The position numbers and the translations under genes are program-made. Positions 8,189 through 40,586 of a stretch of DNA of 64,000 bases are shown here, piece by piece. The notes below the pieces were generated by a model. That model was given only the letters and a program-made list of their open reading frames with translations. It did no database searches and was not told the origin of the DNA. Origin of the DNA: Streptomyces vietnamensis (GTDB lineage: Bacteria; Actinomycetota; Actinomycetes; Streptomycetales; Streptomycetaceae); the NCBI RefSeq assembly GCF_000830005.1, contig NZ_CP010407.1, positions 4,197,001 through 4,261,000 of the forward strand, read 5' to 3'. Positions within the stretch are counted from its first letter, which is position 1, and each line of letters starts with the position of its first letter.

Positions 8189-8722
8189 ATGGCTTTGGGG
8201 CCCGAGGCATTCCGCGACTTCTTCGGATCCGTACCGGCGGCCGTCGCGGTGGTGACCACGGCCGGCCCTGACGGCAGACCACTCGGCTTCACCTGCACCG
8301 CGTTCAGCGCGGTGTCCCTCGACCCGCCCCAGCTGCTGGTCTGCGTGGACGAGGGCTCCCGGACGCTGCCCGCGGTGCTCGGCGCGGAGGCCTTCGCGCT
8401 GCATCTGCTCGACGCCGAGGGGGGCGAGGAGCTCGCTCGTACCTTCGCGGGGCGCTCGGACCGGAAGTTCGACGGTGTGGCGTGGCGGCGCGGCGATTCC
8501 GTGCCCGCGTGCCCGGTGCTGCTCGACGGGGTGCTGGGCCACGCGGAGTGCACGCTGGAGCGGAGCCTGGTCGCCGGTGACCACCGGCTGCTGATCGGCC
8601 GCATGGAGCGGGTTCTGTTACGCGAGGAGGCCCGCCCGCTGCTTTACCGGCGGGGGGCCTTCGCCGCGTGGGACTCCTTGTCGGCCGCCGCGGCACCGGC
8701 ACAGATCGCCGCGGGCACGTGA
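8189..8722 (+). CDS. Flavin reductase, ActVB-like, partner of a two-component monooxygenase
   Basis: 177 residues from the ATG at 8189 (GAGAGG just upstream); in-frame GTG 8153 and ATG 8162 would lengthen it. The flavin reductase-like fold shows FFGSVPAAVAVVTT, GFTCTAFSAVSLDPP, FALHLLDAEG and the C-terminal LLYRRGAFAAWD. ActVB of actinorhodin is an NADH:FMN oxidoreductase that feeds reduced flavin to ActVA-ORF5; a matching ActVA-ORF5-like oxygenase lies at 26267-27424. A rare in-frame TTA codon occurs at 8618-8620, so translation should depend on bldA tRNA. It is the leftmost clear cluster gene. Confidence 0.88.
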   Translation: MALGPEAFRDFFGSVPAAVAVVTTAGPDGRPLGFTCTAFSAVSLDPPQLLVCVDEGSRTLPAVLGAEAFALHLLDAEGGEELARTFAGRSDRKFDGVAWRRGDSVPACPVLLDGVLGHAECTLERSLVAGDHRLLIGRMERVLLREEARPLLYRRGAFAAWDSLSAAAAPAQIAAGT

Positions 8723-8730
8723 CCGGGCGG

Positions 8731-8773
8731 CGGCGGGTTCCCCGCCCGGGGCGGCCGGGCGGGGAACCCGCCG
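8731..8773. terminator. Bidirectional hairpin between convergent genes
   Basis: Arms cggcgggttccccgccc (8731-8747) and gggcggggaacccgccg (8757-8773) pair perfectly over 17 bp. It sits between the flavin reductase stop and the stop of the cyclase gene on the opposite strand, so it can end both transcripts. Confidence 0.85.
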
Positions 8774-8778
8774 GGCGC

Positions 8779-9699
8779 TCAGGCGTGGCAGGTGGGCAGG
8801 CCGCCGTGGTAGTCGATCATGCGGGCGAAGAGTTCGCTCATGTCCACGTGGGAACCGCGGGGCTCGCCCTGTTTCTCGGCGTACGCGCGGAAGAGGTTGG
8901 GGACGAGCCGCTCGGCGTCGAGCCAGCGCGCGTACTCGCCCAGGTCGGTGCGGCGGGCCAGTTCGACCGGGTCGAGGGACTCGGCGAGCCCCTGCTCGGC
9001 GAGGTCCTGGAGCAGGCGCAGATAGCCCTCGGTCTCGTCGAACACGCCGGGGCCCGCGACCGGGCCGTGGCCGGGGACGACCACCTCCGGGGCGAGGGCG
9101 CGCATCGTGTCCAGGGCTTCGAGGGAGCCGGCGACCGAGCCCATGGGGCAGAACGGCGTCACCCCGTTCATCACCAGGTCGCCGGTGAACAGCACCCGTT
9201 CGGCCGGCAGCCAGAGCACCGTGTCGTTGCTGGTGTGCGCCGGGCCCAGGTGCAGCAGCTCGGCCGTCTTCTCGCCGATGTGCAGGGTGAGCCGGTCGCG
9301 GAAGGTCAGCGCCGGCGGGACGAGCCGCAGGTCGCCCCACTCCACGTCCGGCCACAGGCCGGTCATGTGCAGGCCCGTCTCGGTCATCTCCGTACGGGTG
9401 CGCTCGTGGCCGACGACGAGGGACTCCGGGAAGACGAAGTTGCCGAAGGTGTGGTCGCCGTGGAAGTGGGTGTTGACCAGGACCTGTGGGGCGGCCGGGG
9501 CGACCCGGAGCACCACCTCGCGCAGGGTCCTGGCGCGCGCCTCGGTGGCCGCGGTGTCCACGAGCGCGGCGCGGTCGCCCGAGACGACGAGACCGGCGTT
9601 GTTCAGGCACCAGCCCCCGTCCGGCTGGACGTGGGCGAACACCCCGTCGGCGACCTCCGTCAGCTCGGTCCGGACGGCGCCGGCGGTGATTCCGGTCAT
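8779..9699 (-). CDS. Metallo-beta-lactamase-fold polyketide cyclase, ActIV-like
   Basis: 306 residues from an ATG at 9699 preceded by GAGGAGGAG; an upstream ATG at 9735 is possible. The zinc site is NTHFHGDH (residues 76-83) with further ligands in GPAHTSNDTV and PGHGPV. The N-terminal EVADGVFAHVQPDGGWCLNNAG resembles ActIV of actinorhodin, a bifunctional second-ring cyclase/thioesterase that releases the bicyclic intermediate from the ACP. This pairing with the didomain aromatase at 11872 is typical of BIQ pathways. Last gene of a minus-strand run with the PPTase and the SnoaL-like gene. Confidence 0.85.
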   Translation of the reverse strand: MTGITAGAVRTELTEVADGVFAHVQPDGGWCLNNAGLVVSGDRAALVDTAATEARARTLREVVLRVAPAAPQVLVNTHFHGDHTFGNFVFPESLVVGHERTRTEMTETGLHMTGLWPDVEWGDLRLVPPALTFRDRLTLHIGEKTAELLHLGPAHTSNDTVLWLPAERVLFTGDLVMNGVTPFCPMGSVAGSLEALDTMRALAPEVVVPGHGPVAGPGVFDETEGYLRLLQDLAEQGLAESLDPVELARRTDLGEYARWLDAERLVPNLFRAYAEKQGEPRGSHVDMSELFARMIDYHGGLPTCHA

Positions 9700-9718
9700 G
9701 TGGGTCTCCTCCTCGACA

Positions 9719-10489
9719 TCATGGAACTGGCTCATCGTCGGCTGAGCGGCTGGAGCCCCGCTCGAACCCGATCGCGCTGACCACGCCGACCACCGTCCCG
9801 TCGGGCAGTGTGCGGGTGGCGGTGCTCAGGGTGCCGGGCAGCGTGGGCCTGCCGGCCGGGTCCGCCGGGTCGAGGCCGAAGGTGCGGGGCGGGTGCCGAA
9901 GTCCGGTGCCCAGCGCCTTGGCGTAGGCCTCCTTGAGGGTCCACAGGCGCAGCAGCTCCGCGTCGCGCGCCGTGCCGCGCAGCCCTCGTGCGTCGAGTCC
10001 GGCACGTTCATGGGGTGTGCACATCCGGTGCTCCAGTACGGACATGGGGCGGCCGGGCCGTTCCGCGTCCACGCCGACCCGGCCGCCGCGGACGACCGCG
10101 ACGGCCAGCAGGGAGCCGGTGTGGCTGAGGCTGAAGTCCAGCTCCGGCAGGTCGGGGGCGTAGGGGCGGCCCAGTGCGGTGCGGGCGAGCACGATCCCGT
10201 CGGGGTCGCGGTCCGCGAGCGCGCCGAGTGTGGTGCGCAGCAGCAGCCGGGAGGCCAGGAAGCGGCGGCGCAGCCGGTCGTCGCGCAGGGCCCGCAGGCG
10301 GGCGGTGTCACCGGGATGCGGCGGGGCCCGGCGGGATGCGGCGGCCCGCGCCCAGTCCTCGACGGTGCCGTGCACGAGCAACGGCCGCCCGGGTCGGGGG
10401 GTCGGCTCGGGGCCGGGGCTCGGGGCCGGCTCTGGGCCGGGGCGGGGATCGCGGCCGGGGTCCGGGCCTCGGCCCCGTGGTGTCCGCAC
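9719..10489 (-). CDS. Sfp-type 4'-phosphopantetheinyl transferase
   Basis: 256 residues from a GTG at 10489. The Pro/Gly-rich first ~35 residues are unlike the family and may mean a later start. Family motifs are RPYAPDLPELDFSLSHTG, the Mg-binding GVDAE (Asp141, Glu143) and LWTLKEAYAKALG (Trp183, Lys186, Glu187). The enzyme moves phosphopantetheine from CoA to Ser41 of the ACP encoded at 12991 (inference). A dedicated PPTase inside a type II PKS cluster is uncommon, since hosts usually supply one. It starts 15 bp after the SnoaL-like gene on the same strand. Confidence 0.9.
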   Translation of the reverse strand: MRTPRGRGPDPGRDPRPGPEPAPSPGPEPTPRPGRPLLVHGTVEDWARAAASRRAPPHPGDTARLRALRDDRLRRRFLASRLLLRTTLGALADRDPDGIVLARTALGRPYAPDLPELDFSLSHTGSLLAVAVVRGGRVGVDAERPGRPMSVLEHRMCTPHERAGLDARGLRGTARDAELLRLWTLKEAYAKALGTGLRHPPRTFGLDPADPAGRPTLPGTLSTATRTLPDGTVVGVVSAIGFERGSSRSADDEPVP

Positions 10490-10503
10490 GGCGGCGCGGC
10501 CGG

Positions 10504-10932
10504 TCAGACCAGCTGGTCGTGGGTGATCATGCGGGAGCGGGTCCGTACCCCCTCGTCGGTGACGAGCAGGACGTCGTGGACGACGCAGCTGGGCGCGATC
10601 TCGGGCTTTCCACCCGGCCGGACGGTGACGACGAGGGCGTACACGGTGGAGCGCAGCGAGCCGTCGGCCTGCGGCTCCAGGGCGATGTGGTTGAACCAGT
10701 GGCGGCGCTGGACCGGGTCGCCCTCGAAGCGCTTGTGGAACTCCACCAGTTCGGCGACGATCCCGGCCCGACCCACCGCCGGCTGTACGCCGGGGGAGTG
10801 CTGGAAGGTGCCGTCCTCGGTGAAGGTGGCCGCGTAGTCGGCGAAGCGGCCCCCGTCGAGGGCCTGCATCTGGTGGGCGTAGAAGTGCTGGACCTGGGCG
10901 TAGACCTCGGTACGGACGGCGGTGGCGGTCAT
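10504..10932 (-). CDS. SnoaL/NTF2-like or ring-hydroxylating dioxygenase beta-subunit-like protein
   Basis: 142 residues with the cone-shaped NTF2-like fold pattern: QVQHFYAHQMQALDGGRFADYAATFTEDG, HWFNHIAL, and SRMITHDQLV. Such small proteins act as polyketide cyclases, hydroxylases or dehydratases in aromatic pathways; the reaction here cannot be fixed from sequence. It is the first gene of the minus-strand run SnoaL-PPTase-cyclase and diverges from the DUF6081 gene at 11074 over about 140 bp. The strong ATTFTED motif resembles forms seen beside type II PKS genes rather than SnoaL itself (inference). Confidence 0.75.
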   Translation of the reverse strand: MTATAVRTEVYAQVQHFYAHQMQALDGGRFADYAATFTEDGTFQHSPGVQPAVGRAGIVAELVEFHKRFEGDPVQRRHWFNHIALEPQADGSLRSTVYALVVTVRPGGKPEIAPSCVVHDVLLVTDEGVRTRSRMITHDQLV

Positions 10933-11073
10933 CGGTTCCTCCGGAGCGCGGGACGGTCGGTGGCGTCACCCTCGCCGGGCGGGCTCGAAGGGGCCTCCAC
11001 TGCGGCTTGAGCCGGGGCGACGAACCTCGCTCCGTCACACCCCCTCGTCACCGAGCCGAGACAGGAGCCGGGC

Positions 11074-11856
11074 ATGCTGTTCGAGGACGATTTCCGCGAG
11101 GACTGGGCCGCGCCGGGGCGGGTGGCCCGCTGGCGGCTGCGACCGCTGCCGTGGCTCGCGCAGGGCGACGCCCGGGTGTGGACGCCCGGCGACGGCGACG
11201 GGCTGTGCGTGGCGTCGGGGTACGGCACGGGGCGCGGGGAGCGGCCCGCGTTCACCCGGGTGCCGGCGGGGCAGCAGGAGCCGCATCTGCGGTGGGCCGC
11301 GTTCGCGGAGCCGGAGGCGCGCGGGCCCGGGCCGTTCCGGGCGGAGGCGGACCTGTCGGCGCGTGTCCTTTCGGCGGACCGGCACCCGGAGGGGGACGGC
11401 CCCGCGTGCGCGATGGCCGCGCTGATCTGCGTGGACATGGTCTCGGGCCTGGCCTTCGACTTCGCGCTGACGAACGGGTTCGTGTGGGCGCTGTACGAAC
11501 GTCTGCCACGCCCCGGTGGGACCCACGGCTCGTTCGCGTACGCCGTTCCGGTGGCGCCGCGCACTCCGGAGGCGTGGCATCACTGTGCGGTCGAGGTGGA
11601 CGCGTCGGCGGGACGGGCCCGCTGGCTGCTCGCGGGCGAGGAGGTGTTCGCGGTGGACCGTACGGGCCTGGAGCTCGACGCCCGGTACGGCCACCGCCTG
11701 GAGCGCTCCACGCCGGGTCCGCGCACCGAGGTGGCTCCGGACCGGCTGACCGTCGGCATCGGGCTGCTCGCCGCGGCGGCGTACGGTCAGGGGGTGCGCC
11801 TGCGAGCCCGCCGCGTGGCGCTGGCGGCGGGCTCTCAGGGGAGTGACGCGCCCTGA
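11074..11856 (+). CDS. DUF6081 family protein, paralogue 1
   Basis: 260 residues, ATG with AGGAG upstream. It is homologous to the product of 18818-19567: both open with F-(E/H)-DDF, share a central FDFALTNG/LDFALTGG, then ALYERLP/ALYGRVP, (A/S)YAVP(V/L)AP, a segment like HHCAVEVDASAGRARWLL, and a VFAVD motif. The pattern fits DUF6081, a family with a LamG-like beta-sandwich feel and no known activity. No signal peptide or obvious metal site is seen. Its presence twice in one polyketide cluster suggests a pathway role, perhaps ring closure or intermediate binding (inference). Confidence 0.75.
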   Translation: MLFEDDFREDWAAPGRVARWRLRPLPWLAQGDARVWTPGDGDGLCVASGYGTGRGERPAFTRVPAGQQEPHLRWAAFAEPEARGPGPFRAEADLSARVLSADRHPEGDGPACAMAALICVDMVSGLAFDFALTNGFVWALYERLPRPGGTHGSFAYAVPVAPRTPEAWHHCAVEVDASAGRARWLLAGEEVFAVDRTGLELDARYGHRLERSTPGPRTEVAPDRLTVGIGLLAAAAYGQGVRLRARRVALAAGSQGSDAP

Positions 11857-11871
11857 TCCCGGGCGCGGCGG

Positions 11872-12990: not shown

Positions 12991-13248
12991 TCAGGCGGCC
13001 CGCACTTCCGAACCGTTGACGAGGTCGAGCAGGAGACGCGGGGTGAGCGCCTCGTTGACGTCGTCGTCGTCGAGGGTGACGCCGAACTCCCGCTCGATGC
13101 GGGCGGCGCTCTCCATGAGGGCCAGGGAGTCGTAGCCGAGGTCCTCGAACGTGATGTCGAGGATGTCGCCGGAGAGGTCGGCGCTGTCGTCCTCTCCGGC
13201 GCAGGCGACGAGGATGGTGCGCAGTGCGTCGAGGGTCAGTCGTGCCAT
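12991..13248 (-). CDS. Acyl carrier protein of type II PKS
   Basis: 85 residues. The phosphopantetheine site is LGYDSLALME with Ser41; acidic helix II and a hydrophobic core are as expected. ATG at 13248 with a GGAG-type site upstream. It carries the growing polyketide chain between KS/CLF, the ketoreductase and the cyclases. It stands 17 bp after the chain-length factor gene in the usual KS-CLF-ACP order. Activation is probably by the Sfp-type enzyme encoded at 9719. Confidence 0.96.
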   Translation of the reverse strand: MARLTLDALRTILVACAGEDDSADLSGDILDITFEDLGYDSLALMESAARIEREFGVTLDDDDVNEALTPRLLLDLVNGSEVRAA

Positions 13249-13265: not shown

Positions 13266-14525
13266 TCAGGGTCGGTGGGTGGTGAGGACGACGGCCGAGT
13301 TGAAGCCGTGGCGGCCTCGGGCCAGAACCAGGGCGGTGCTCAGGGCGGCCTCGCGGGGCTGCCCGGTCACCAGGTCGAGCCGGTAGGCGTCCGGCACCCG
13401 CGCGGTCCGGCCGGTCGCGGGGATCACCTGGTCGCGCAGGGCGAGCAGGGCGGCCACGAGATCGGTGGGACCGCCGCCCGCGCACAGGCGCCCGGTGAGG
13501 GCCTTGGGCGCGGTCACGGGAACGCCGTGCGGTCCGAAGAGCCGGCTGATCGCCTCGGCCTCGGCCCGGTCGAGGTCCGGGACACCCGCGCCGTCGGCGA
13601 ACACCACGGAGACGTCGGCGGGCGTCAGACCCGCCTGCGCGAGGGCGAGTTCGGCGGCGCGGCCGAGGGCGGGCGGCCGGCCGGAGCCGGGCGCCGGGTC
13701 GAAGGTCGCGGCATAGCCGGCGATCTCGCCGTAGATCCGCTCGACGCCGCGCTCGCGCGCCGAGTCGGCGTTCTCGACGATGAGCACGGCGCCGCCCTCG
13801 CCGGGCACGTGGCCGGAGGCTTCGGCGTCGAAGGGCAGGTAGGCGCGCTCCGGGTCGGCGACCGTGCTGACCAGGCCGCCGGCGAGCTGGGAGGCGTACC
13901 CCCAGGGGTCGAGCGCGGAGTCGACGCCGCCGGTGAGCACGAGACGGGTGCCGCGGCGGACCGTGCGGCAGGCGTGTCCGATCGCGTCGAGGCCGCCGGC
14001 CTGCTCCCCGACCAGCGCGGCGCTGGGGCCGCGCATGGTGTTGCGGATGGAGATCTGACCGGTGTTGACGGCGTAGAACCAGGCGAACGACTCGTACACG
14101 CTGACGTACTGGGGTCCCTGGCTCCACAACTTGTGGAACTCCCGGTGGGTGAAGTCGAAGCCGCCCTGCGCGGTGGAGGTGACGACACCGAGGTCGTAGT
14201 CCTCGAAGCCCGCGTCGGGGCCCACGCCCGCGTCGGCGAGCGCCCAGTCCGCGGCGACGAGCGCGTAACGGGTGGACACGTCGGTCTGCGGCAGCAGCCG
14301 GCCGGGCAGGTGATCGGAGGCCTCGAAGTCGTCGATCTGGCCCGCCAGCCGGGACGGGTAGTGCGAGGCGTCGAACCGGGACAGCTCGCCGATGCCGTTC
14401 TCGCCGGTCAGCAGGGCCTTCCAGTAACGCTCGGTGCCGATGCCGCCGGGCGCGGTGACGCCGAGACCGGTGACGACGATCCGCTGTCCCGAGGCACCGG
14501 CCCCGGCGCTCGACGGCGTGCTCAT
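13266..14525 (-). CDS. Chain-length factor (KS-beta) of type II PKS
   Basis: 419 residues, a ketosynthase fold in which the nucleophilic Cys is Gln175 (LVGEQAGGLDA), diagnostic of a CLF. The stretch GGFDFTHREFHKLW contains Phe123, Thr126 and Phe130, with the same spacing as the act CLF gatekeepers Phe109, Thr112 and Phe116 that limit the product to 16 carbons, so an octaketide is predicted. The ATG overlaps the KS-alpha stop (ATGA), coupling translation of the heterodimer. Confidence 0.95.
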   Translation of the reverse strand: MSTPSSAGAGASGQRIVVTGLGVTAPGGIGTERYWKALLTGENGIGELSRFDASHYPSRLAGQIDDFEASDHLPGRLLPQTDVSTRYALVAADWALADAGVGPDAGFEDYDLGVVTSTAQGGFDFTHREFHKLWSQGPQYVSVYESFAWFYAVNTGQISIRNTMRGPSAALVGEQAGGLDAIGHACRTVRRGTRLVLTGGVDSALDPWGYASQLAGGLVSTVADPERAYLPFDAEASGHVPGEGGAVLIVENADSARERGVERIYGEIAGYAATFDPAPGSGRPPALGRAAELALAQAGLTPADVSVVFADGAGVPDLDRAEAEAISRLFGPHGVPVTAPKALTGRLCAGGGPTDLVAALLALRDQVIPATGRTARVPDAYRLDLVTGQPREAALSTALVLARGRHGFNSAVVLTTHRP

Positions 14526-15787
14526 GCGGCCACCTCCGGGCGGTGCAGGACCATCGCGCTCTGGAACCCGCCGAAGCCGCTGCCCACCGTGAGGACGGTG
14601 TCGACGCGCAGCTCACGCGCGGTGAGCGGCACGTAGTCCAGGTCGCACTCGGGGTCGGGGTTGTGCAGGTTCGCCGTCGGCGGGACGACGTTGTGCTCGA
14701 TGGCCAGGATCGACGCGGCGATCTCGATGGAGCCGATCGCACCGAGCGAGTGGCCCACCATGGACTTGATGGAGCTGACGGGCACCGCGTACGCCTGGTC
14801 GCCGAGGCTGCGCTTGAACGCGGCCGTCTCGTGGCGGTCGTTCTGCTTCGTGCCGGAGCCGTGCGCGTTGACGTAGTCGACGGCGGTGCGGTCGAGACGG
14901 GCCTCGTCGAGGGCCGCCCGGATGGACTCGGCCATCTCGCGGCCGTCCTTCTTCAGACCCGTCATGTGGTACGCGTTGCAGCGCGTGGCATAGCCGCCGA
15001 CCTCGGCGTAGATGTGCGCCCCGCGCCGCTTGGCGGCCTCGTACTCCTCGAGGACGAACATGGCGGCGCCCTCGGCGAGGACGAAGCCGTTGCGGGTGCC
15101 GTCGAAGGGCCGGGAGGCGTGCTCCGGGTCGTCGTTGCGGGGAGTCGTCGCCTTGATGGCGTCGAAGCAGGCGACGACGATCGGGGAGACGGGGGTGTCG
15201 GCCGCACCCGCGACCGCCACGTCCACACTGCCCTCGCGGATCAGCTGGACGGCGTAGCCGACCGAGTCCAGACCCGAGGTGCAGCCGTCGGACACCATGG
15301 TGACCGGCCCCTCGGCGCCGGCCGCCCAGGCGACCTCGGCGGCCATGACCCCCGGGCTGAGGTAGTCGAACATGTACGGCGACAGGTGCGCCGGATCCAC
15401 CACCCACTCACGGCCGGCGTCCGCCATCACGAGGTACTCGTTCTCCAGGCTGGTCGCGGAGGCGACGGCACTGCCCAGGGCGACGCCGATCCGGGAGGGA
15501 TCGAGCGCGCCCGTCTCCAGGCCGCTGTCGGCGAGCGCCTCCCGGGTGCAGGCGACGGCGAACTGGGTGGCGCGGTCCATGCGCCGGACCTCGCGCGGCG
15601 AGAAGCCCTCGGCCCGCGCGTCGAAGTCGACCTCGCCCGCGATCCGGGACCGGAACGGAGCGGCGTCGAAGAAGCTGATGGGCCGGGTGGCCGAGCGGCC
15701 CGCGGTGAGCAGGTCCCAGAACTCCTTCGTCCCCGAGCCGCCAGGGGCGCGCACCCCGACCCCGGTGATCACTACGCGTCGGGTCAC
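14522..15787 (-). CDS. Beta-ketoacyl synthase alpha (KS-alpha) of type II PKS
   Basis: 421 residues from a GTG at 15787 preceded by AGGAGGAC; upstream in-frame sequence is not coding-like. Catalytic residues are Cys169 (VSDGCTSGLDS), one His in NAHGSGTKQND and one in SMVGHSLGAIGS. Cys at position 169 is the same number as in ActI-ORF1. It condenses malonyl units on the ACP together with the CLF. First gene of the minus-strand PKS run, reading away from the ketoreductase gene. Confidence 0.96.
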   Translation of the reverse strand: MTRRVVITGVGVRAPGGSGTKEFWDLLTAGRSATRPISFFDAAPFRSRIAGEVDFDARAEGFSPREVRRMDRATQFAVACTREALADSGLETGALDPSRIGVALGSAVASATSLENEYLVMADAGREWVVDPAHLSPYMFDYLSPGVMAAEVAWAAGAEGPVTMVSDGCTSGLDSVGYAVQLIREGSVDVAVAGAADTPVSPIVVACFDAIKATTPRNDDPEHASRPFDGTRNGFVLAEGAAMFVLEEYEAAKRRGAHIYAEVGGYATRCNAYHMTGLKKDGREMAESIRAALDEARLDRTAVDYVNAHGSGTKQNDRHETAAFKRSLGDQAYAVPVSSIKSMVGHSLGAIGSIEIAASILAIEHNVVPPTANLHNPDPECDLDYVPLTARELRVDTVLTVGSGFGGFQSAMVLHRPEVAA

Positions 15788-16032: not shown

Positions 16033-16851
16033 ATGACGACGCAGACAGCCACGGACACGGCCGAGGCCGACGCTCCGGCGAAGCCGGTGGCGCTGGTGAC
16101 CGGTGCCACCAGCGGCATCGGTCTGGCGATCGCCAGGCGGCTCGCCGCACTCGGCGCGCGCACCTTCCTCTGCGCCCGGGACGAGGCGCGGCTCACGGAG
16201 ACGGTCAAGGAGCTCCAGGCCGAGGGCCTCGACGTGGACGGCACGGTGTGCGACGTGGCGGACCCGGCGCAGATCCGCGCCTATGTGGCGGCGGCCGTCC
16301 AACGGTACGGAACGGTCGACATCCTGGTGAACAACGCCGGCCGCAGCGGCGGCGGCGCCACCGCCGAGATCCCCGACGAGCTGTGGCTCGACGTCATCAA
16401 CACCAACCTGACGAGCGTCTTCCTCATGACGAAGGAGGTGCTGGGCGCCGGTGGGATGCTGGCCAAGAAGCGCGGCCGGATCATCAACATCGCGTCCACG
16501 GGCGGCAAGCAGGGCGTGGTGCACGCGGTGCCGTACTCGGCGTCCAAGCACGGTGTCGTCGGTCTGACCAAGGCCCTCGGCCTGGAGCTGGCCCGCACCG
16601 GCATCACCGTGAACGCCGTGTGCCCCGGCTTCGTGGAGACCCCGATGGCCGAGAAGGTGCGCGAGCACTACGCCGGCATCTGGCAGGTGTCCGAGCAGGA
16701 GACCTTCGACCGCATCACCGCCCGGGTGCCGATGGGCCGGTACGTCGAGACCCGCGAGGTCGCGGCGATGGTCGAGTACCTGGTGGCGGACGACGCGGCG
16801 GCGGTCACCGCGCAGGCGCTCAACGTCTGCGGCGGGCTGGGCAACTACTGA
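16033..16851 (+). CDS. Polyketide C9 ketoreductase, ActIII-like SDR
   Basis: 272 residues. The NADPH site is TGATSGIG, the catalytic set Ser155, Tyr168 and Lys172 (INIAST, PYSASKHG), and the C-terminus AQALNVCGGLGNY is typical of ActIII-type reductases. The XGG motif that governs stereochemistry appears as Ser105-Gly106-Gly107 where ActIII has Pro-Gly-Gly. It reduces the C9 carbonyl of the octaketide, fixing the first ring fold. ATG preceded by AAGGGAGAC. Its stop overlaps the next ATG by one base. Confidence 0.94.
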   Translation: MTTQTATDTAEADAPAKPVALVTGATSGIGLAIARRLAALGARTFLCARDEARLTETVKELQAEGLDVDGTVCDVADPAQIRAYVAAAVQRYGTVDILVNNAGRSGGGATAEIPDELWLDVINTNLTSVFLMTKEVLGAGGMLAKKRGRIINIASTGGKQGVVHAVPYSASKHGVVGLTKALGLELARTGITVNAVCPGFVETPMAEKVREHYAGIWQVSEQETFDRITARVPMGRYVETREVAAMVEYLVADDAAAVTAQALNVCGGLGNY

Positions 16852-31937: not shown

Positions 31938-33620
31938 TCAGTTCTTGCCCGCGGGCTGCTTCCCCTGCTCCTTGGCGCCGCCCGGCGCACCGGCGGCGGG
32001 CTCACGGCGCTTCTCCTTCGGCACGGCCGCGAGGACGAGGGCGATCAGCAGCATGACCGCGCTGACCACGAAGACGGTCTGCATCGCCTCGGCCAGGCCC
32101 TCCAGGAACGGCTTGGCGAGCCGCGGGTCGGCGTGGTCGAGGAAGGAGCTGTCGTCCATCGGTACGGCACCGTCCCGGGCCCCGAGCAGCACCTTGTTGG
32201 CTGCCTGCCCGGTCACGGACGGGTCGTTCAGGGCCGCCGCGAAGGCGGGGTCGGAGGCGGCGTCGCGGTAGGCGGCGGCGACCTTCTCGCCGACCGCGCC
32301 GAAGAACATCGACAGGAAGACGGCGATGCCGGCGGTGCCCCCGATCTGCCGGAAGAAGGTGAACGAGCCCATGCCGGCGCCCATGTACTGAGGCGCGACA
32401 CCCGTCTGGATCGCGATGAGCATGACCTGCCAGCACAGGCCGATTCCGAAGCCCATCAGTCCGGCGGCGACGCCCGTCAGCCACAGCGAGGTGTCCACGG
32501 TGAGCGTCCCGAACCAGAGGGTCGCGGCGACCATCAGGACGAGGCCGGTCAGCAGGACCACCTTGTAGCGGCCGGTCTTGGTGACGTACGGACCGGCGAT
32601 CCGGCCCGCCACGACGATGCCCAGCGTCTGAGGCAGCATCATCAGGCCGGCCTCGGTGGGGGACAGGCCCTTGACCATCTGGAAGTACAGCGGCAGGACG
32701 GACAGCGCGCCGAACACGGCGGCGCCGATGAGGACGTTGACGCCGTTGTAGACGGAGAAGAGCGGGTTGCGGAACATCGGCGTGGGCAGCAGGGCCGCGT
32801 CGGCCGCCCGCTTCTGCGCCAGCAGGAACAGCACCAGGCCGACCGCGCCCAGACCGAACAGCAGAAGCGTTCCCTGGTCGGTCCAGCCCCACTTCGGGCC
32901 CTGTTCGACCGCGAAGAGCAGCGGCAGCAGGCAGGCGATCAGCGCGAGCAGGCCCGCGATGTCGAACTTGTGCCGGGTGCGGTTCGGCTGGACGCGCACC
33001 AGCGTGCCGATGAGGAGCGCGGCGGCCAGGCCGATCGGCACGTTGACGAAGAAGGCCCAGCGCCAGCCGGTCGCGCCGAGGAAGGAGTCGAGCCCGGCGA
33101 AGAAGCCGCCCGCGACGGGGCCGATGACGGCCGAGACGCCGAAGACCGCGCCGAACCACGCCTGGTAGCGGCTGCGTTCGGTCAGCGGCACCAGGTCGGT
33201 GAGGATCGCGAAGGCGAGACTCATCAGACCGCCGGCGCCGAGGCCCTGGATGCCGCGGAACACGGCGAGCGTCGTCATGGACTGGGCGAGGCCGGAGAGC
33301 ACGGAGCCGAGGATGAAGATGCCGACGGCGCTGACGTAGACGGGCCGGCGGCCGTAGATGTCCGAGAGCTTGCCGTAGAGCGCCGTCGTGATCACCGAGG
33401 TGATCATGTACGAGGTGTTCGCCCAGGCCTGCTCCGAGAGACCGTCCAGGTCGTCGGCGATGGTACGCAGCGCCGCGGAGATGATCGTCTGGTCGAGCGC
33501 GGCCATGAACAGGCCGAGCAGCAGACCCGTCATGATCAGCCGGATCCTGCGCTTGTCCACCGTCCCGGCGTCGGCACCGGAATCGGGCGCGGGGGAATCC
33601 GGCTTCGCTGTGTCTGTCAT
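31938..33620 (-). CDS. MFS multidrug/antibiotic exporter, DHA2 (14-TMS) type
   Basis: 560 residues starting MTDTAK at 33620. Fourteen membrane segments; motif A is YGKLSDIYGRRPVY and motif C-like segments GVSAVIGPVAGGFF; TM1 holds FMAALDQTIISAALRTI typical of DHA2 transporters. It should export the pathway product by proton antiport and give self-resistance, like the actII exporters of actinorhodin (inference). A SoxR box lies in its promoter, so expression probably follows the appearance of the redox-active product. Confidence 0.93.
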   Translation of the reverse strand: MTDTAKPDSPAPDSGADAGTVDKRRIRLIMTGLLLGLFMAALDQTIISAALRTIADDLDGLSEQAWANTSYMITSVITTALYGKLSDIYGRRPVYVSAVGIFILGSVLSGLAQSMTTLAVFRGIQGLGAGGLMSLAFAILTDLVPLTERSRYQAWFGAVFGVSAVIGPVAGGFFAGLDSFLGATGWRWAFFVNVPIGLAAALLIGTLVRVQPNRTRHKFDIAGLLALIACLLPLLFAVEQGPKWGWTDQGTLLLFGLGAVGLVLFLLAQKRAADAALLPTPMFRNPLFSVYNGVNVLIGAAVFGALSVLPLYFQMVKGLSPTEAGLMMLPQTLGIVVAGRIAGPYVTKTGRYKVVLLTGLVLMVAATLWFGTLTVDTSLWLTGVAAGLMGFGIGLCWQVMLIAIQTGVAPQYMGAGMGSFTFFRQIGGTAGIAVFLSMFFGAVGEKVAAAYRDAASDPAFAAALNDPSVTGQAANKVLLGARDGAVPMDDSSFLDHADPRLAKPFLEGLAEAMQTVFVVSAVMLLIALVLAAVPKEKRREPAAGAPGGAKEQGKQPAGKN

Positions 33621-33834: not shown

Positions 33835-34986
33835 ATGAGATTCCTTTTTGTGTCCGGAGGAAGCGCGGGGGCGGTCTTCCCCATCACCCCGCTGGCGCTC
33901 GCGGCGCGCAACGCCGGCCACGAGGTGATCGTCGGGGCCACGGAGAACGTGATGCCGCTGGTCGCCGCGACGGGCCTGCCCGGCGCCCCGATCACCTCGC
34001 GCACCATGTACGACTTCATGCAGCGCGACCGGCACGGCAATCCGCTGGAGATCCCCAAGGACCCCCACGAGCGGAACCTGTTCAACGGCCGGGGCATGGC
34101 CCGCCTCGCCCTGGGCAGCATGGAAGGCCTCGTCCCGCTGGTCGAGCGCTGGCGGCCCGACGTCCTGGTCGCCGGAGCCCTCTCGTACGCCGCCCCGCTC
34201 GTCGCCCACCGCTTCGGCCTGCCCTGGGTGCGGCACGCCCTCAACATGGGCGAGCCGTCCATCATCGACCTGTCCGCCGCCGCCGAACTGGCGCCGGAGC
34301 TGGAGGAGATGGGCCTGCCCGCGATCCCCGACCCGGACATGTACGTGGAGATCTGCCCGCCCGGCGCCCGCCGCCCGGACGCGGGGCCCGCACAGTTCAT
34401 GGGGTACGTGCCCTTCAACACCCAGCGGGCGCTCGAACCCTGGATGTACTCCAGGAGCGGCGACCGGCCGCGCGTCCTGGTCTCGGCCGGCAGCCGGGTG
34501 ACCGCCGACTACGAGGCCGACGCCCTGTCCGCCCTGGTGGAGAAGGTCGCCGGGCTCGACGTGGAGCTGCTCATCGCGGCGCCGCAGGAGATCGCGGACG
34601 CCCTGGGCGACCTTCCGGAGAACGTACGGGCGGGCTGGCTGCCGCTCGACGTCGTGCTGCGCACCTGCGACCTGCTCGTGCACCGGGCCGGCGGCAACAC
34701 GATGCTGCACGCGATCGTGTGCGGCGTCCCCCAGCTGCTGATCCCGGCGATGCCGAAGCAGGTGGGGATGTCGGCCCGGCTCGCGGAGTACGGCGCCGCG
34801 ATCATGCTGACGGCGGGACAGGACGACTCCCCCGAGAACGTCGCCAAGATGTGCCGGGAGCTGCTCGAAGACCCGTCCTACAAGGCCAGGACCGAGGAGC
34901 TGAGCAGGGAGATCGCGGGGCTGCCCACCCCCCACGACGTGACGGTCGCCATCGCCGACATGGTCCGCGCGCGCGGGGGGATGTGA
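33835..34986 (+). CDS. GT1-family glycosyltransferase (EryCIII/DesVII-like)
   Basis: 383 residues, GT-B fold. N-terminal FLFVSGGSAGAVFPITPLALAARNAGHEV and C-terminal donor motif HRAGGNTMLHAIVCGVPQLLIPAMPKQVGMSARLAEYGAAIML are characteristic of antibiotic sugar transferases using dTDP-deoxysugars. It is the clearest transferase for the trideoxyhexose; O- or C-linkage cannot be read from sequence. It diverges from the exporter gene over a 214-bp gap. The next gene on the strand is the small peptide gene, 141 bp later. Confidence 0.92.
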   Translation: MRFLFVSGGSAGAVFPITPLALAARNAGHEVIVGATENVMPLVAATGLPGAPITSRTMYDFMQRDRHGNPLEIPKDPHERNLFNGRGMARLALGSMEGLVPLVERWRPDVLVAGALSYAAPLVAHRFGLPWVRHALNMGEPSIIDLSAAAELAPELEEMGLPAIPDPDMYVEICPPGARRPDAGPAQFMGYVPFNTQRALEPWMYSRSGDRPRVLVSAGSRVTADYEADALSALVEKVAGLDVELLIAAPQEIADALGDLPENVRAGWLPLDVVLRTCDLLVHRAGGNTMLHAIVCGVPQLLIPAMPKQVGMSARLAEYGAAIMLTAGQDDSPENVAKMCRELLEDPSYKARTEELSREIAGLPTPHDVTVAIADMVRARGGM

Positions 34987-35127: not shown

Positions 35128-35301
35128 ATGAACCACGTCCTCGCCGAGAACCCCGCCTGGGCCGCCGTCCTCACCGCGGCCCCCGAGGAGTCCCCGGCCA
35201 CGCTGTCGATCGAGGACCTGGACACGATCCCCGCCGACGCGGCGGCGCTGTTCACCCTCTGCGTCCTGGCTCCCGAGCCGGCCGAGGCCGTCGCGGCCTG
35301 A
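35128..35301 (+). CDS. Putative RiPP (TOMM) precursor peptide
   Basis: 57 residues, ATG preceded by GGAAGGAA. The peptide is acidic, with an amphipathic leader-like part containing SIEDLDTIPADAAALF, then a short C-terminus with TLCVLAPEPAEA. Heterocyclisable residues after the leader are only Thr43 and Cys45. It ends 7 bp before the fused cyclodehydratase gene, the normal place for a TOMM precursor. Leader motifs of the EDLD type are common in azole-forming RiPPs. No similarity to a named precursor is recognised. It could instead be a small carrier or regulatory peptide. Confidence 0.7.
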   Translation: MNHVLAENPAWAAVLTAAPEESPATLSIEDLDTIPADAAALFTLCVLAPEPAEAVAA

Positions 35302-35308
35302 CACCCCG

Positions 35309-37615: not shown

Positions 37616-37812
37616 CACCGGGACGCCGGGCCACGCCCGACCTCCCCTCTCGGCCATCGCCCTCCCCGCGGCGGGGAACCGCCGCTGTTCGGAGACCGTT
37701 CACCGAGGTCGGAGCCGATGATGACCCGGACAGCGCGGTCCGATATTTCCATGATCGGCATCGTTGTACCTTCCGGTGTGTCTCTTCCCCCACAGAGAGG
37801 TCGTCACCTCTG

Positions 37813-39066
37813 ATGAACTCGACGGAACGACAGTCCGACGATCCGAACGGCGCCGCGCCGCACCTCCCCCACGACGGATCCACCGTGCCCGCCCCCCGCC
37901 TGGCACGCTCGGTCCTGCTGGCCACGATGGCCGGATACTCCCTGGTCACCGCCGTGAACATCCTCGACGCCGGGGCCTCCCCCCGCGAGAGCGGCGCCGG
38001 TTTCCTCGCCCTGCTCGTGATATTCGGCCTCCAGCTCGTGCACTCCAGGCCGAACGCCCGGCAGAGCTCGTACACATGCCGCGTCACCACGCTCACCCTG
38101 CAGGCCGTGTTCTGCTTCTTACCGCTCGCGCTGTTCCACCTGGCATGGGGAGCGATGTGCGGCTTCCTGGCCGGCTCCGTCCTCCTGCTCCTCCCGGCCC
38201 GGGCGGCCTGGCCGCTGTACGTGGCGATCGGACTCTCCCTCTACGGGTACGCGGCGTTCATCGCCGACCGCGGCCTCTTCGACAGCGTCTACACACTGGA
38301 GACCACCCTCGTCACCGGGCTCGTGGTGTTCGGTCTCAGCAGCCTGACCGGTCTGGTGACGCGCCTGCACGCGCAGCGTTCCGACCTGGCCAGGCTGGCC
38401 GTGGCCGAGGAGCGGCTCCGCTTCTCCCGTGACCTCCACGACCTGCTCGGCTACAACCTGTCCGCGATCACCCTGAAGACCGAGCTGGTCCGCCGGCTGG
38501 TGCCGGACATGCCGGCCCCCGCCAGGGTGGAGACCGACTCCGTCCTCGCCCTGTCCCGCCAGTCGCTCGCCGATGTGCGCAAGGTCGCGACCGGCTACCG
38601 CGACATGTCACTGCGTGAGGAGGCGGCCGCCACCCGCTCGATGCTGGAGGCCGCAGGCATCAAGGTGGTGACGGCCATCGACACGGCCCCGCTGCCGCCG
38701 CAGATCGACACGGTGCTCGCCACCGTGCTGCGCGAGGCCGTCACCAACGCGCTGCGGCACAGCCACGTCCACCGGTGCACGATCCGGTGCGGGGAGGAGG
38801 ACGGCGTGGTCACGCTCAGTATCGACAACGACGGCGTGGAGCCCGCCGACCGGCATCCCGGTGGTGTGGGGCCCCTGCCCCGGCAGGGGGCGGACGAGCC
38901 CGGCGGCACCGGCCTGGGCAACCTCACCCACCGCCTCGGCCGCCTCGGCGGCAGCCTCACCACCGAACTGGGCGACGACGGTTGGTTCCGGATGACCGCA
39001 CGCGCACCGCTGTCCGCTCGACCTGACAAAGTCACCCTTAACCGGAAGGAGACCGCACAGAAATAA
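37813..39066 (+). CDS. NarL/DesK-type sensor histidine kinase with a TTA codon
   Basis: 417 residues. Five or six membrane segments (about 30-185) without a large sensor loop, then HisKA_3 with RDLHDLLGYNLSAITLK (phosphoacceptor His) and an HATPase domain (REAVTNALRHS N-box, DNDG, GGTGLGNLTHRLG). It phosphorylates the response regulator encoded 47 bp downstream. An in-frame TTA at 38119-38121 (CFLPLALF) makes translation depend on bldA Leu-tRNA, linking it to development. ATG at 37813; the ribosome site is weak. The 197-bp gap before it should hold its promoter. Confidence 0.92.
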   Translation: MNSTERQSDDPNGAAPHLPHDGSTVPAPRLARSVLLATMAGYSLVTAVNILDAGASPRESGAGFLALLVIFGLQLVHSRPNARQSSYTCRVTTLTLQAVFCFLPLALFHLAWGAMCGFLAGSVLLLLPARAAWPLYVAIGLSLYGYAAFIADRGLFDSVYTLETTLVTGLVVFGLSSLTGLVTRLHAQRSDLARLAVAEERLRFSRDLHDLLGYNLSAITLKTELVRRLVPDMPAPARVETDSVLALSRQSLADVRKVATGYRDMSLREEAAATRSMLEAAGIKVVTAIDTAPLPPQIDTVLATVLREAVTNALRHSHVHRCTIRCGEEDGVVTLSIDNDGVEPADRHPGGVGPLPRQGADEPGGTGLGNLTHRLGRLGGSLTTELGDDGWFRMTARAPLSARPDKVTLNRKETAQK

Positions 39067-39112
39067 ACAATTGTAGTCTAAATACAGTCGAACCACGGGG
39101 GGATTGACCACA

Positions 39113-39721
39113 GTGATACGGATATTGCTGGCCGAGGACATGGGCATGGTCCGCGGCGCGCTGGTGGCGCTGCTGGGCCTGGAGGACGACCTCGAGGTGG
39201 TCGCGCAGGTCGAGCGCGGCGACAGGATCCTCCCGACCGCCCTGGAGCACCGCCCCGACGTGGCGATCATCGACATCGGGCTCCCCGGCATCGACGGCCT
39301 GACGGCGGCGGCACTGCTCGCCGAGGAACTCCCCTCCTGCCGCACCCTCATCCTGACGAGCCTCAGCCGCCCCGGAGTCCTGCGACGGGCACTGGACGCC
39401 AAGGTGGCCGGTTTCCTGCCGAAGGACGCGTCCCCCCAGGACCTCGCCGAGGCCATCCGCCGGATCGCGGCCGGTCACCGCGCCATCGACCTCCAGCTCG
39501 CCCTCGCGGCCTGGGACGGCGCCGAGAGCCCGCTCACCAAACGGGAGCTGGAGGTACTCCGCCTCACCGCCGCGGGCGACGAGGCCCCGGAGATCGCCGC
39601 CCGGCTGCACCTGTCCACGGGGACCGTCCGCAACTACCTGACCTCGGTCGTCACCAAGCTGAACGCCCGCAACCGCGTCGACGCGGTGCGCATCGCGCAC
39701 GAGTCCGGCTGGCTGGTCTGA
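39113..39721 (+). CDS. NarL/LuxR-type response regulator
   Basis: 202 residues from a GTG with GGGGGGA nine bases upstream (a TTG at 39104 is less likely). The receiver domain has Asp54 (AIIDIGLPGIDG) and Lys in FLPKDAS; the C-terminal LuxR HTH reads LTKRELEVLRLTAAGDEAPEIAARLHLSTGTVRNYL. Partner of the kinase upstream. The 46-bp gap between them is notably AT-rich (acaattgtagtctaaatac), perhaps an internal promoter. It converges with the SARP gene, 22 bp apart. Confidence 0.92.
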   Translation: MIRILLAEDMGMVRGALVALLGLEDDLEVVAQVERGDRILPTALEHRPDVAIIDIGLPGIDGLTAAALLAEELPSCRTLILTSLSRPGVLRRALDAKVAGFLPKDASPQDLAEAIRRIAAGHRAIDLQLALAAWDGAESPLTKRELEVLRLTAAGDEAPEIAARLHLSTGTVRNYLTSVVTKLNARNRVDAVRIAHESGWLV

Positions 39722-39743
39722 CACCCGGCCGGACCCGTACGCG

Positions 39744-40586
39744 TCAGGTGCGCATCAGAGAGGGGCCGGCGTACTGCGCCCGCTCCCACTCCAGCTCAAG
39801 CCCGGGCTCACCGGAGAGCACCGCCTGGTGCAGCCGCTGCAGACGGTGCGAGGGCTCCACCCCCAGCTCCTCGATGAGGGTCCTGCGCAGCTCCTGGAAC
39901 ACCTCGAGCGCCCGCCACACCCCGCCCGACCGGTACAGCGCCGTCATCAGCTGCGCGGCCAGGTTCTCGTTCATCGGATGCCGGGCGACCAGCATCCGCA
40001 GCTCGGCCAGGAGCGAGGCGTGCCGTCCGAGCAGCAGATCCGCCTCGATCCGCTGTTCGAGCACCCGGGTGCGCTGCTCCTCCATCCCGAGCACCTCGAC
40101 CCCCAGAACCCGCCCGACCGGCACGTCCACCAGTGCGGGCCCCCGCCAGAGCCCGAGCGCCCGCTCCAGCGTCACGGACGCGGCCCGCGGGTCGCCCGCC
40201 TCGAGCGCCGTCGATCCGCGGACCGCGAGCGACTGGAACTCCCGCAGATCACTGTCCTCGGGACGCACGGCGAGCCGGTACCCCCCGAAGCAGGTCGTGA
40301 GCACCTCCTTGGCGTCCCCGTCCCGGCCCGGCCCACAGCCCGGCCCGTCGGCACGCAGCGCCGCGGTCACCTTCCGGCGCAGATGAAGGATGTACGTCTG
40401 CAGCGTGGTGGCCGCGCTCTTGGGGATCGCGTCCCCCCAGATCTCCTCCATCAGCGTCGGCACGGTCACCACCCGCTCCGCTCTGATGGCGAGCAGCGCG
40501 AGCAGTTGGCGCGGCTTGCCCGCACTGGGAACGATCGACTGTCCGTTCAGACGGACCGTGAGCGGCCCGAGAATCCCCACATCCAT
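39744..40586 (-). CDS. SARP family transcriptional activator, ActII-ORF4-like
   Basis: 280 residues from the ATG at 40586 (GGGGGAG upstream). N-terminal OmpR-like winged helix (MDVGILGPLTVRLNGQSIVPSAGKPRQLLALLAIRAERVV through TTLQTYILHLRRKV) and a C-terminal BTAD domain (EFQSLAVRGSTALEAGD, LALMTALYRSG-like). This two-domain size is that of pathway-specific activators such as ActII-ORF4. It probably turns on the PKS genes from the 15788-16032 region (inference). Unlike actII-ORF4 it has no TTA codon; the developmental brake appears moved to the kinase and flavin reductase. Confidence 0.93.
   Translation of the reverse strand: MDVGILGPLTVRLNGQSIVPSAGKPRQLLALLAIRAERVVTVPTLMEEIWGDAIPKSAATTLQTYILHLRRKVTAALRADGPGCGPGRDGDAKEVLTTCFGGYRLAVRPEDSDLREFQSLAVRGSTALEAGDPRAASVTLERALGLWRGPALVDVPVGRVLGVEVLGMEEQRTRVLEQRIEADLLLGRHASLLAELRMLVARHPMNENLAAQLMTALYRSGGVWRALEVFQELRRTLIEELGVEPSHRLQRLHQAVLSGEPGLELEWERAQYAGPSLMRT

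What the first reader, a model, noticed from the sequence alone, without database searches (positions are those of the whole stretch)
8189..40586. BIQ-type (actinorhodin/granaticin-like) glycosylated type II PKS cluster within about 15-50 kb of oriC
KS-alpha, CLF, ACP, ActIII-like KR, didomain aromatase, ActIV-like cyclase, ActVA-ORF5/ActVB-like pair and frnE are all present. That is the toolkit for a C9-reduced octaketide made into a benzoisochromanequinone-type skeleton. Streptomyces biosynthetic clusters are more often on the arms, yet this one sits between the conserved crgA block and tRNA-Ala/gyrA. The combination with a 2,3,6-trideoxyhexose pathway, an own PPTase and an embedded RiPP unit is one I do not recognise as a known compound's cluster.
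Basis: partly seen in the sequence, partly recalled or inferred. Interest (0 to 1): 0.82.

Follow-up and report, generated by a model that had tools for sequence, protein, structure and literature searches.

The report
Known granaticin antibiotic gene cluster
The 32-gene block beside the replication origin is the known gene cluster for the antibiotic granaticin, not a new compound's cluster, but it carries two overlooked parts: a small modified-peptide and sensor module that recurs beside other Streptomyces antibiotic genes, and a second protein with a glycosyltransferase fold.

Summary
In detail: the named genes are present at 8249-40586, 14-47 kb from oriC. The novelty claim does not: this is the granaticin (gra) cluster. 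A homologue of the 57-aa peptide is named Gra-orf13, published numbers (Gra-ORF6, 10, 20, 29, 32) fall on the right genes, and two proteins of the proven producer PTY087I2 are 78% and 90% identical. G573 has 32 of 32 genes at the same locus; S. litmocidini has 18 of 18 in reach, with the crgA-side flank. The site is usually about 9 kb, so it is not genus-wide. MIBiG was not available; the host (probably S. vietnamensis) rests on memory. Two parts deserve attention. (1) Peptide-YcaO-HK-RR: in an unbiased sample of 14 other YcaO loci, HK relatives lie within about 10 kb in 14 and RR relatives in 14 (13 at 62-73% identity; in 81 loci without YcaO, one RR at 60% or more), a SARP in 7, beside type II PKS, NRPS or halogenase genes. 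This looks like a modified-peptide signalling module, reminiscent of ComQXPA. (2) DUF6365 (22541-23728) has a GT-B fold (low-confidence models), while a 2025 paper counts one glycosyltransferase and calls double C-glycosylation unexplained.

The parts
8249..8722 (+). flavin reductase (ActVB-like), by count gra-orf34
   Evidence: PF01613 E 2e-31
8779..9735 (-). ActIV-like metallo-beta-lactamase-fold cyclase, by count gra-orf33
   Evidence: PF00753 E 3e-27
9719..10375 (-). Sfp-type PPTase = Gra-ORF32
   Evidence: PF01648 E 9e-13; PMC9813960 describes Gra-ORF32
10504..10932 (-). SnoaL-like protein
   Evidence: PF13577 E 8e-19
11074..11856 (+). DUF6081 (ActVA-3/NcnN family oxidase)
   Evidence: PF19559 E 1e-56; family role in PMC10697411
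11872..12858 (-). didomain aromatase/cyclase
   Evidence: PF03364, 2 stretches
12991..13248 (-). ACP
   Evidence: PF00550
13266..14525 (-). CLF (KS-beta)
   Evidence: best PDB match actinorhodin CLF 1tqy_B E 2e-172; 97% in S. litmocidini
14522..15787 (-). KS-alpha
   Evidence: PF00109/PF02801
16033..16851 (+). ActIII-like ketoreductase (Gra-ORF5)
   Evidence: ActIII structures E 7e-118
16851..17645 (+). SDR 3-ketoreductase (Gra-ORF6)
   Evidence: PF13561; 90% to granaticin producer PTY087I2; role of Gra-ORF6 in PMC4498746
17680..18699 (+). luciferase-like oxygenase (Gra29)
   Evidence: PF00296 E 8e-71; Gra29 in PMC10697411
18818..19567 (+). second DUF6081 protein
   Evidence: PF19559 E 2e-54
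19564..20913 (+). NDP-hexose 2,3-dehydratase, by count gra-orf27
   Evidence: PF03559 E 5e-147
20931..21911 (+). NDP-hexose 3-ketoreductase (Gfo/Idh), by count gra-orf26
   Evidence: PF01408
21933..22544 (+). NDP-sugar 3(,5)-epimerase
   Evidence: PF00908 E 2e-46
22541..23728 (+). DUF6365, GT-B-fold protein, by count gra-orf24: candidate second glycosyltransferase
   Evidence: PF19892 E 3e-130; Foldseek and VIA lists of GT-B-fold proteins for its own model and that of a 43% identical relative
23755..25056 (-). NDP-hexose 3,4-dehydratase (RfbH/SpnQ type)
   Evidence: NF011936 643 bits, cut-off 423
25151..26047 (-). NAD-dependent 4-ketoreductase-like protein
   Evidence: PF01370 E 5e-20
26267..27424 (+). 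ActVA-ORF5-like flavin monooxygenase
   Evidence: PF08028 E 6e-26; two-component monooxygenases in PDB
27565..28122 (-). SoxR/MerR-type regulator = Gra-ORF20
   Evidence: PF13411, PF09278; PMC8733708
28124..28747 (-). FrnE-like DsbA-fold protein
   Evidence: PF01323 E 8e-51
28894..29502 (-). 202-aa protein of unknown family (signal-like N-terminus by eye)
   Evidence: no Pfam match; relatives in other type II PKS loci
29615..30580 (-). dTDP-glucose 4,6-dehydratase
   Evidence: PF16363 E 9e-75
30577..31578 (-). glucose-1-phosphate thymidylyltransferase
   Evidence: PF00483 E 3e-46
31938..33620 (-). MFS exporter
   Evidence: PF07690 E 4e-50
33850..34986 (+). EryCIII/UrdGT2-like glycosyltransferase (by count Gra-ORF14)
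   Evidence: PF06722; UrdGT2 2p6p E 9e-91; best hit 4rig E 4e-99, of the LanGT2 set by the titles of 4rif/4rih
35128..35301 (+). 57-aa TOMM-like precursor peptide = Gra-ORF13
   Evidence: P0005 named 'Gra-orf13 protein', 79% identity
35330..37615 (+). YcaO cyclodehydratase fused to leader-binding domain, by count Gra-ORF12
   Evidence: TIGR03604 254 bits, TIGR03882 148 bits, both over cut-off
37813..39066 (+). HisKA_3 histidine kinase with about six hydrophobic segments, by count Gra-ORF11
   Evidence: PF07730 at 200-266; hydropathy
39146..39721 (+). LuxR-type response regulator = Gra-ORF10
   Evidence: PF00072, PF00196; Gra-orf10 named in PMC10697411
39744..40586 (-). SARP activator (by count Gra-ORF9)
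   Evidence: PF03704 E 6e-44
40807..40881 (-). tRNA-Ala(TGC), right border of the cluster
   Evidence: ARAGORN, Rfam

Best explanation
This is the granaticin biosynthetic gene cluster (gra-orf1 to 6 and 9 to 34 in published numbering), 32 genes at 8249-40586. KS-alpha/CLF/ACP, activated by the in-cluster PPTase, build an octaketide. KR, aromatase and ActIV-like cyclase fold it; the SDR (Gra-ORF6) sets the 3R centre; flavin oxygenases hydroxylate and oxidise the rings. The NDP-sugar genes supply a 2,6-dideoxyhexose, joined twice by C-C bonds, and L-rhodinose, the extra sugar of granaticin B. SARP, HK/RR and a SoxR-type regulator control it; an MFS pump exports. Shown here: gene content and order, identity to two proteins of a proven producer, the same block at the same locus in G573 and, for the part in reach, in S. 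litmocidini. Inferred: the product, the role of each tailoring gene, the functions of the peptide/YcaO pair and of DUF6365.
For: P0005, a homologue of the 57-aa peptide, is named Gra-orf13 (79%). Counting genes from the SARP as orf9 puts RR at 10, the peptide at 13, the SoxR-like gene at 20, the LLM oxygenase at 29 and the PPTase at 32, with the PKS block as 1-6: as named in PMC10697411, UniRef, PMC8733708 and PMC9813960 (genes). Streptomyces sp. [quoted passage not shown] PMC5026429), has a YcaO 78% and an SDR 90% identical. S. litmocidini has 18 of the 18 cluster genes in reach, at 92-99%, next to DUF5324-ppiA-crgA. G573 has 32 of 32 genes in the same order between gyrA-DUF3566 and DUF5324-crgA. 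The genome has two further type II KS/CLF pairs at 6.36 and 7.96 Mb, as PMC9813960 reports for S. vietnamensis. Contig 1 is 8,867,142 bp, which I recall as the S. vietnamensis chromosome length. A paper title in the reference list of PMC12190653 equates litmomycin with granaticin A; that litmomycin comes from S. litmocidini is my inference from the name.
Against: No metabolite data. The Tu22 and S. vietnamensis cluster sequences and Ichinose 1998, Deng 2011 and Deng 2015 could not be opened here, so identity to the published cluster rests on the P0005 name, numbering anchors and a producer strain. The numbering was partly recalled before the anchors were checked. Only 2 PTY087I2 proteins were compared, and PMC5577605 counts 22 of 37 gra genes there. 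L013 ends before the left half of the cluster.
Confidence: 0.96

Rival explanations
1. A close relative of the granaticin cluster that makes a different glycosylated BIQ (altered sugar or oxidation) because of sequence differences in tailoring genes.
For: Identity of the 57-aa peptide to P0005 (Gra-orf13) is 79% and of the YcaO to PTY087I2 78%; no chemistry was tested.
Against: All 32 genes are kept in G573 in the same order; the gene set accounts for granaticin A and B, and no extra tailoring gene was seen inside the block.
Confidence: 0.03
2. An uncharacterised new compound's cluster near oriC.
For: None of the 80 CLF loci shows PPTase, YcaO and sugar dehydratase genes together, though those loci reach at most 10 kb to each side and L013, the S. 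litmocidini copy, is cut off before the YcaO.
Against: Gra-orf13 name, the numbering anchors, PTY087I2.
Confidence: 0.01
3. For the peptide/YcaO/HK/RR part only: the peptide is itself an antibiotic or a passenger operon, and HK/RR regulate only its own making (as nisin does, recalled), without control of granaticin.
For: 7 of 14 other YcaO loci have no SARP at 50% or more within about 10 kb, and a SagB/ThcOx-type oxidase sits beside the YcaO of L132, as for a self-standing azole peptide.
Against: The module recurs beside type II PKS, NRPS and halogenase genes, and a SARP is next to it in 7 of 14 sampled loci.
Confidence: 0.45

Closest known systems
granaticin cluster of Streptomyces violaceoruber Tu22 and S. 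vietnamensis GIMV4.0001
   Same: PKS block, PPTase (Gra-ORF32), SoxR-like Gra-ORF20, response regulator Gra-ORF10, LLM Gra29, Gra-ORF6-type SDR and the Gra-ORF13 peptide occur at matching positions
   Different: nothing found; probably the S. vietnamensis cluster itself (chromosome length recalled, not checked by a call)
S. litmocidini JCM 4394 (L013) and G573 (contig length equal to that of P0003's S. vilmorinianum contig)
   Same: same genes and order at the same origin-proximal locus
   Different: 79-99% protein identity; L013 covers only 18 of the 32 genes and the crgA-side flank
medermycin and actinorhodin clusters
   Same: BIQ type II PKS logic; medermycin is C-glycosylated
   Different: ActVI-ORF1/Med-ORF12 (3HAD family, 3S) instead of the SDR Gra-ORF6 (3R) according to PMC4498746
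naphthocyclinone cluster (S. arenae; S. humi proteins are its best hits in PMC10697411)
   Same: Gra-6-type SDR, LLM, DUF6081, flavin reductase (PMC10697411)
   Different: dimeric; no sugar gene relatives within the S. humi stretch L015
ComQXPA peptide signalling of Bacillus (recalled, no call)
   Same: peptide gene, peptide-modifying enzyme, multi-segment HisKA_3 kinase and LuxR-type response regulator in a row
   Different: YcaO instead of the isoprenyl transferase ComQ; signalling not shown; SARP and antibiotic genes adjoin

Membership tests
granaticin biosynthetic gene cluster | gra gene set and order (PKS 1-6, 9-34) | tested here: met
   32 genes in order; anchors 6, 10, 13, 20, 29, 32 fit (PMC4498746, PMC10697411, PMC8733708, PMC9813960); the remaining numbers follow by count
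granaticin biosynthetic gene cluster | close sequence identity to a proven producer's genes | tested here: met
   YcaO 78% and SDR 90% to PTY087I2; only 2 of 32 genes could be compared
granaticin biosynthetic gene cluster | production of granaticin A/B | not testable with these tools
   no metabolite data
actinorhodin/medermycin-type BIQ cluster (3S) | 3HAD-family ketoreductase ActVI-ORF1/Med-ORF12 | tested here: not met
   none of the 40 proteins scanned between 4848 and 45633 gave a 3HAD Pfam match; the SDR is present instead
TOMM-type RiPP | YcaO cyclodehydratase with leader-binding domain | tested here: met
   TIGR03604 and TIGR03882 over cut-off
TOMM-type RiPP | precursor peptide just upstream with a recurring leader motif | tested here: met
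   57-aa ORF 28 bases before the YcaO; P0001-P0005 are alike. An ORF with I(E/D)(D/E/S)...C lies upstream of the YcaO in 11 of 14 other loci (pattern written after seeing them; 31 of 5491 small control ORFs). Against: no such match in L048, L050, L067, L076, and the G573 copy has 10 of 12 codon changes nonsynonymous
TOMM-type RiPP | modified peptide product | not testable with these tools
   needs mass spectrometry
ComQXPA-like peptide signalling system | peptide, modifying enzyme, HisKA_3 kinase with several membrane segments and LuxR-type RR side by side | tested here: met
   35128-39721; HK and RR relatives in 14 of 14 sampled YcaO loci, one of them (L142) only distant
ComQXPA-like peptide signalling system | isoprenyl transferase ComQ | tested here: not met
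   the modifying enzyme is a YcaO; so it may work like ComQXPA but is not a member
ComQXPA-like peptide signalling system | secreted peptide activates the kinase | not testable with these tools
   needs deletion and complementation
GT-B glycosyltransferase (DUF6365 protein) | GT-B fold | tested here: met
GT-B glycosyltransferase (DUF6365 protein) | canonical GT1 donor-phosphate motif (recalled) | tested here: not met
   by eye, at the position of AGGNT in the 33850-34986 GT it has VPASA/LPSFA
GT-B glycosyltransferase (DUF6365 protein) | sugar transfer activity | not testable with these tools
   needs enzyme assay or gene deletion

The most novel reading that the evidence does not exclude
gra-orf13-12-11-10 (35128-39721) is a peptide-hormone module: a YcaO-modified ribosomal peptide is released and sensed by the multi-segment HisKA_3 kinase, whose LuxR-type regulator switches on the SARP and so the antibiotic genes, ComQXPA-like. 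The same peptide-YcaO-HK-RR set, found in about a quarter of sampled Streptomyces genomes beside type II PKS, NRPS and other product genes, would be a widespread peptide signal for antibiotic production in a genus known for small-molecule hormones. A second, separate case: DUF6365 is the overlooked second glycosyltransferase of the granaticin pathway (double C-glycosylation or rhodinosyl transfer; probability about 0.4, interest 0.68).
Probability: 0.35. Interest if true: 0.8.

Novelty: already known. Interest (0 to 1): 0.5.

Why it matters
As a cluster it is dereplicated: no new compound should be expected. What matters is inside. A peptide-YcaO-HK-RR module that travels with antibiotic clusters of several classes would, if it signals, add modified peptides to the Streptomyces hormones and give a handle to wake silent clusters. 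And a 2025 paper (PMC12190653) states that only a single glycosyltransferase homologue is known in the gra cluster and that double C-glycosylation is unexplained; DUF6365 is a second candidate that one deletion would test.

Tried and rejected
Rejected: new compound's cluster (see rivals). Rejected: cluster fixed at this locus throughout the genus. Tried: att-like repeats of tRNA-Ala or tRNA-Ile elsewhere in the window, no exact match of 13 bases or more. Tried: profile-profile comparison of 12 DUF6365 sequences with 17 protein families: the GT family gives E 0.0014 over 321 columns but a probability of only 18%, and KR has the same E and probability over 84 columns, so this alone decides nothing. 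PDB sequence search with DUF6365: no match up to E 1. The VIA lists hold GTs and UDP-GlcNAc 2-epimerases, which share the fold, so the fold does not show transferase activity; UrdGT2 and LanGT2 are not among the 50 rows for the window's own model. DUF6365 is not confined to BIQ clusters: L112 (other type II PKS with methyltransferases), L113 (two copies with deoxysugar genes) and L099 (radical SAM cluster) also hold it.

Changed at the self-check: answered, so the YcaO module was tested on an unbiased sample and became the first novel case; VIA was run for the window's own model too, since one search is that of the L023 relative; the aminotransferase and GT genes of L096-L098 were checked by Pfam; interest was raised from 0.35 to 0.5 for these.


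Full report
What is there. A codon-usage gene call and Pfam/NCBIfam scans give 32 genes between the flavin reductase at 8249 and the SARP start at 40586. They are bordered by DUF6344/DUF5324/ppiA/rhomboid/crgA on one side and tRNA-Ala, an HTH protein, a protein kinase, tRNA-Ile, DUF3566 and gyrA on the other. The window is G000:C1:4197001-4261000 of a 9.15-Mb genome. Ten DnaA-box-like sites cluster at 54885-55447, so the PKS cluster is about 14-47 kb from oriC.

Which cluster it is. The search with the 57-aa peptide listed five proteins, all 57 aa (one, P0001, without a named source); P0005 (79%) is named 'Gra-orf13 protein'. That pointed to granaticin. Counting outward with the SARP as orf9, RR is 10, HK 11, YcaO 12, peptide 13, GT 14, MFS 15, NTT 16, 4,6-dehydratase 17, the 202-aa protein 18, FrnE 19, the SoxR-like gene 20, the flavin monooxygenase 21, 4-ketoreductase 22, 3,4-dehydratase 23, DUF6365 24, epimerase 25, 3-ketoreductase 26, 2,3-dehydratase 27, DUF6081 28 and the LLM oxygenase 29. 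After the PKS block (6, 5, 1, 2, 3, 4) come DUF6081 30, SnoaL 31, PPTase 32, cyclase 33 and flavin reductase 34. The papers name Gra-ORF20 as SoxR-like (PMC8733708, passages), Gra-ORF32 as the PPTase (PMC9813960, abstract, outline and passages), Gra29 as an FMN monooxygenase of the LLM class and Gra-orf10 beside a response regulator (PMC10697411, passages), and Gra-ORF6 as the 3R-setting SDR (PMC4498746, passages). All fall on the right gene. Part of the numbering (for example orf14, 26, 27, 33) was recalled and is not from a call.

Sequence support. Streptomyces sp. PTY087I2 makes granaticin and relatives (PMC5026429 and PMC5577605, passages); its YcaO is 78% (P0012) and its SDR 90% (P0129) identical to the window's, both listed with a longest contig of 274,862 bases. 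PMC8733708 states that the only granaticin cluster of S. vietnamensis has the same organisation as that of S. violaceoruber Tu22. No call confirms the species name, and a plasmid comparison found no close record. Two further KS/CLF pairs lie at 6.36 and 7.96 Mb, in line with the two additional type II PKS clusters that PMC9813960 reports for S. vietnamensis.

Locus. S. litmocidini (L013) has 18 of the 18 cluster genes in reach of the fetched stretch, at 92-99%, beside DUF6344-DUF5324-ppiA-rhomboid-crgA; the other side lies beyond the stretch. G573 has 32 of 32 genes at 79-97% in the same order, between dnaA-gyrA-DUF3566 and DUF5324-ppiA-crgA. In a genus sample of 101 genomes, DUF5324 was found in 101 and DUF3566 in 99. 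In 88 both lie on one contig (11 on different contigs, 2 missing). Without the own genome (38.6 kb) the interval has a median of 9.0 kb; it is at most 15 kb in 60 of 87 and above 15 kb in 27 of 87, one of these 6.4 Mb and so a rearrangement or assembly case. The site is therefore usually small but variable, and the granaticin cluster is one of its fillings. No integrase was among the Pfam matches of the 40 proteins scanned, and no exact att-like tRNA repeat of 13 bases or more was found.

Peptide, YcaO, kinase, regulator. The YcaO protein has both TOMM domains over cut-off and 1480 relatives at E up to 1e-40. In the CLF-chosen loci, YcaO relatives lie beside a SARP in L048, L050, L067 and L076 (53-57%), and a cut-off copy in L061; HK and RR relatives accompany it in L048 and L076, and in L061 with the RR about 16 kb away. 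An unbiased sample followed: 15 of 61 genus genomes, own included, have the YcaO at E up to 1e-60. Of the 14 others, fetched with up to about 10 kb on each side (two cut short by contig ends), 14 have a relative of the HK (37-51%) and 14 of the RR (13 at 62-73%; L142 at 42%, with HK and RR 7-8 kb off), 7 a SARP at 53-63%, 3 clear KS/CLF genes and a fourth (L141) a CLF at 48% and KS at 32%. Control: over the 19 YcaO loci from both sets, RR at 60% or more in 16, HK at 37% or more in 16, SARP at 50% or more in 12; over the 81 other loci of 9 kb or more, 1, 0 and 6. The gra copies L013 and L109-L111 and the plasmid stretch L095 were left out of both groups. The two further misses for RR among the 19, L050 and L067, have the YcaO within 1.2 kb of the stretch's end.

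Precursors and neighbours. Upstream of the YcaO, 11 of 14 sampled loci have an ORF that fits I(E/D)(D/E/S) followed after 4-32 residues by Cys (counted by eye on the output); L136 has a near form, L141 and L142 none. The pattern was written after seeing these sequences; 31 of 5491 small ORFs in up to 60 control loci fit it. The gra peptides fit it. L048 has IEDLD but no Cys after it, L050 and L067 a Cys without the motif, L076 neither. One of two genes tested in L132 encodes a ThcOx/nitroreductase-type oxidase between YcaO and HK, as azole-forming TOMM operons have (recalled); the 40 scanned window proteins include none. Other neighbours tested are acyltransferase, AMP-binding and carboxyltransferase genes (L138), an FAD enzyme and a GGDEF/EAL protein (L140), a tryptophan halogenase and an ATP-grasp enzyme (L130), an EF-Tu-type GTPase (L132) and an NRPS condensation domain (L143) (ten genes of five loci only). 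The window's kinase has a HisKA_3 domain after about six hydrophobic segments. Peptide, modifying enzyme, such a kinase and a LuxR-type regulator in a row recall ComQXPA (from memory). That the peptide signals, and to what, is inference. 'YcaO' + 'SARP' + 'type II polyketide' gave no paper and 'granaticin' + 'YcaO' one (listing only); no paper search was left, so I do not claim that the module is undescribed.

Where DUF6365 occurs. L023, L047 (the same Frankia contig, by length, as L114) and L097 are type II PKS loci; L096 and L098 have sugar and type II PKS tailoring relatives but no KS in the 20 kb fetched. All five have a DegT aminotransferase gene, and four of five (not seen in L023) an EryCIII/UrdGT2-like GT, in L098 about 8 kb off. 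L112, L113 and L099 have other contexts. PMC12190653 (passages) says that only a single GT homologue is known in the gra cluster and that double C-glycosylation is unexplained. Three searches of the open-access library showed no paper linking DUF6365 to it: 'DUF6365' 0 papers, 'granaticin' + 'glycosyltransferase' + 'double C-glycos' 1, 'granaticin' + 'C-glycosyltransferase' 3 (one opened for passages). Subscription papers, Ichinose 1998 among them, were not seen. The second-GT role is a hypothesis.

Verdict. What is left of interest is the peptide-YcaO-HK-RR module and the second GT candidate.

Noticed in passing
4602-4802: Four DnaA boxes (three TTATCCACA, one TTGTGCACA) between crgA and the rhomboid gene, about 50 kb from oriC; five and four such boxes at the same place in L013 and L111. 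Recalled: a DnaA-box cluster of this sort is described in S. coelicolor.
   Followed up: partly
interval 7213-45073 (DUF5324 to DUF3566): The interval is over 15 kb in 27 of 87 other genus genomes and 72-101 kb in three: a variable region next to oriC whose contents were not examined.
   Followed up: partly
28894-29502: 202-aa protein without Pfam match; relatives (26-40%) occur in other type II PKS or sugar loci (L015, L029, L032, L037, L042, L044, L096-L098).
   Followed up: no
L113:8059-11784: Two DUF6365 genes in opposite directions, separated by an acyltransferase-domain gene, with deoxysugar genes nearby.
   Followed up: partly
L099:1-19901: DUF6365 gene in a cluster with three radical SAM proteins (one B12-binding) and an ABC transporter; no type II PKS relatives found.
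   Followed up: partly
   Followed up: partly
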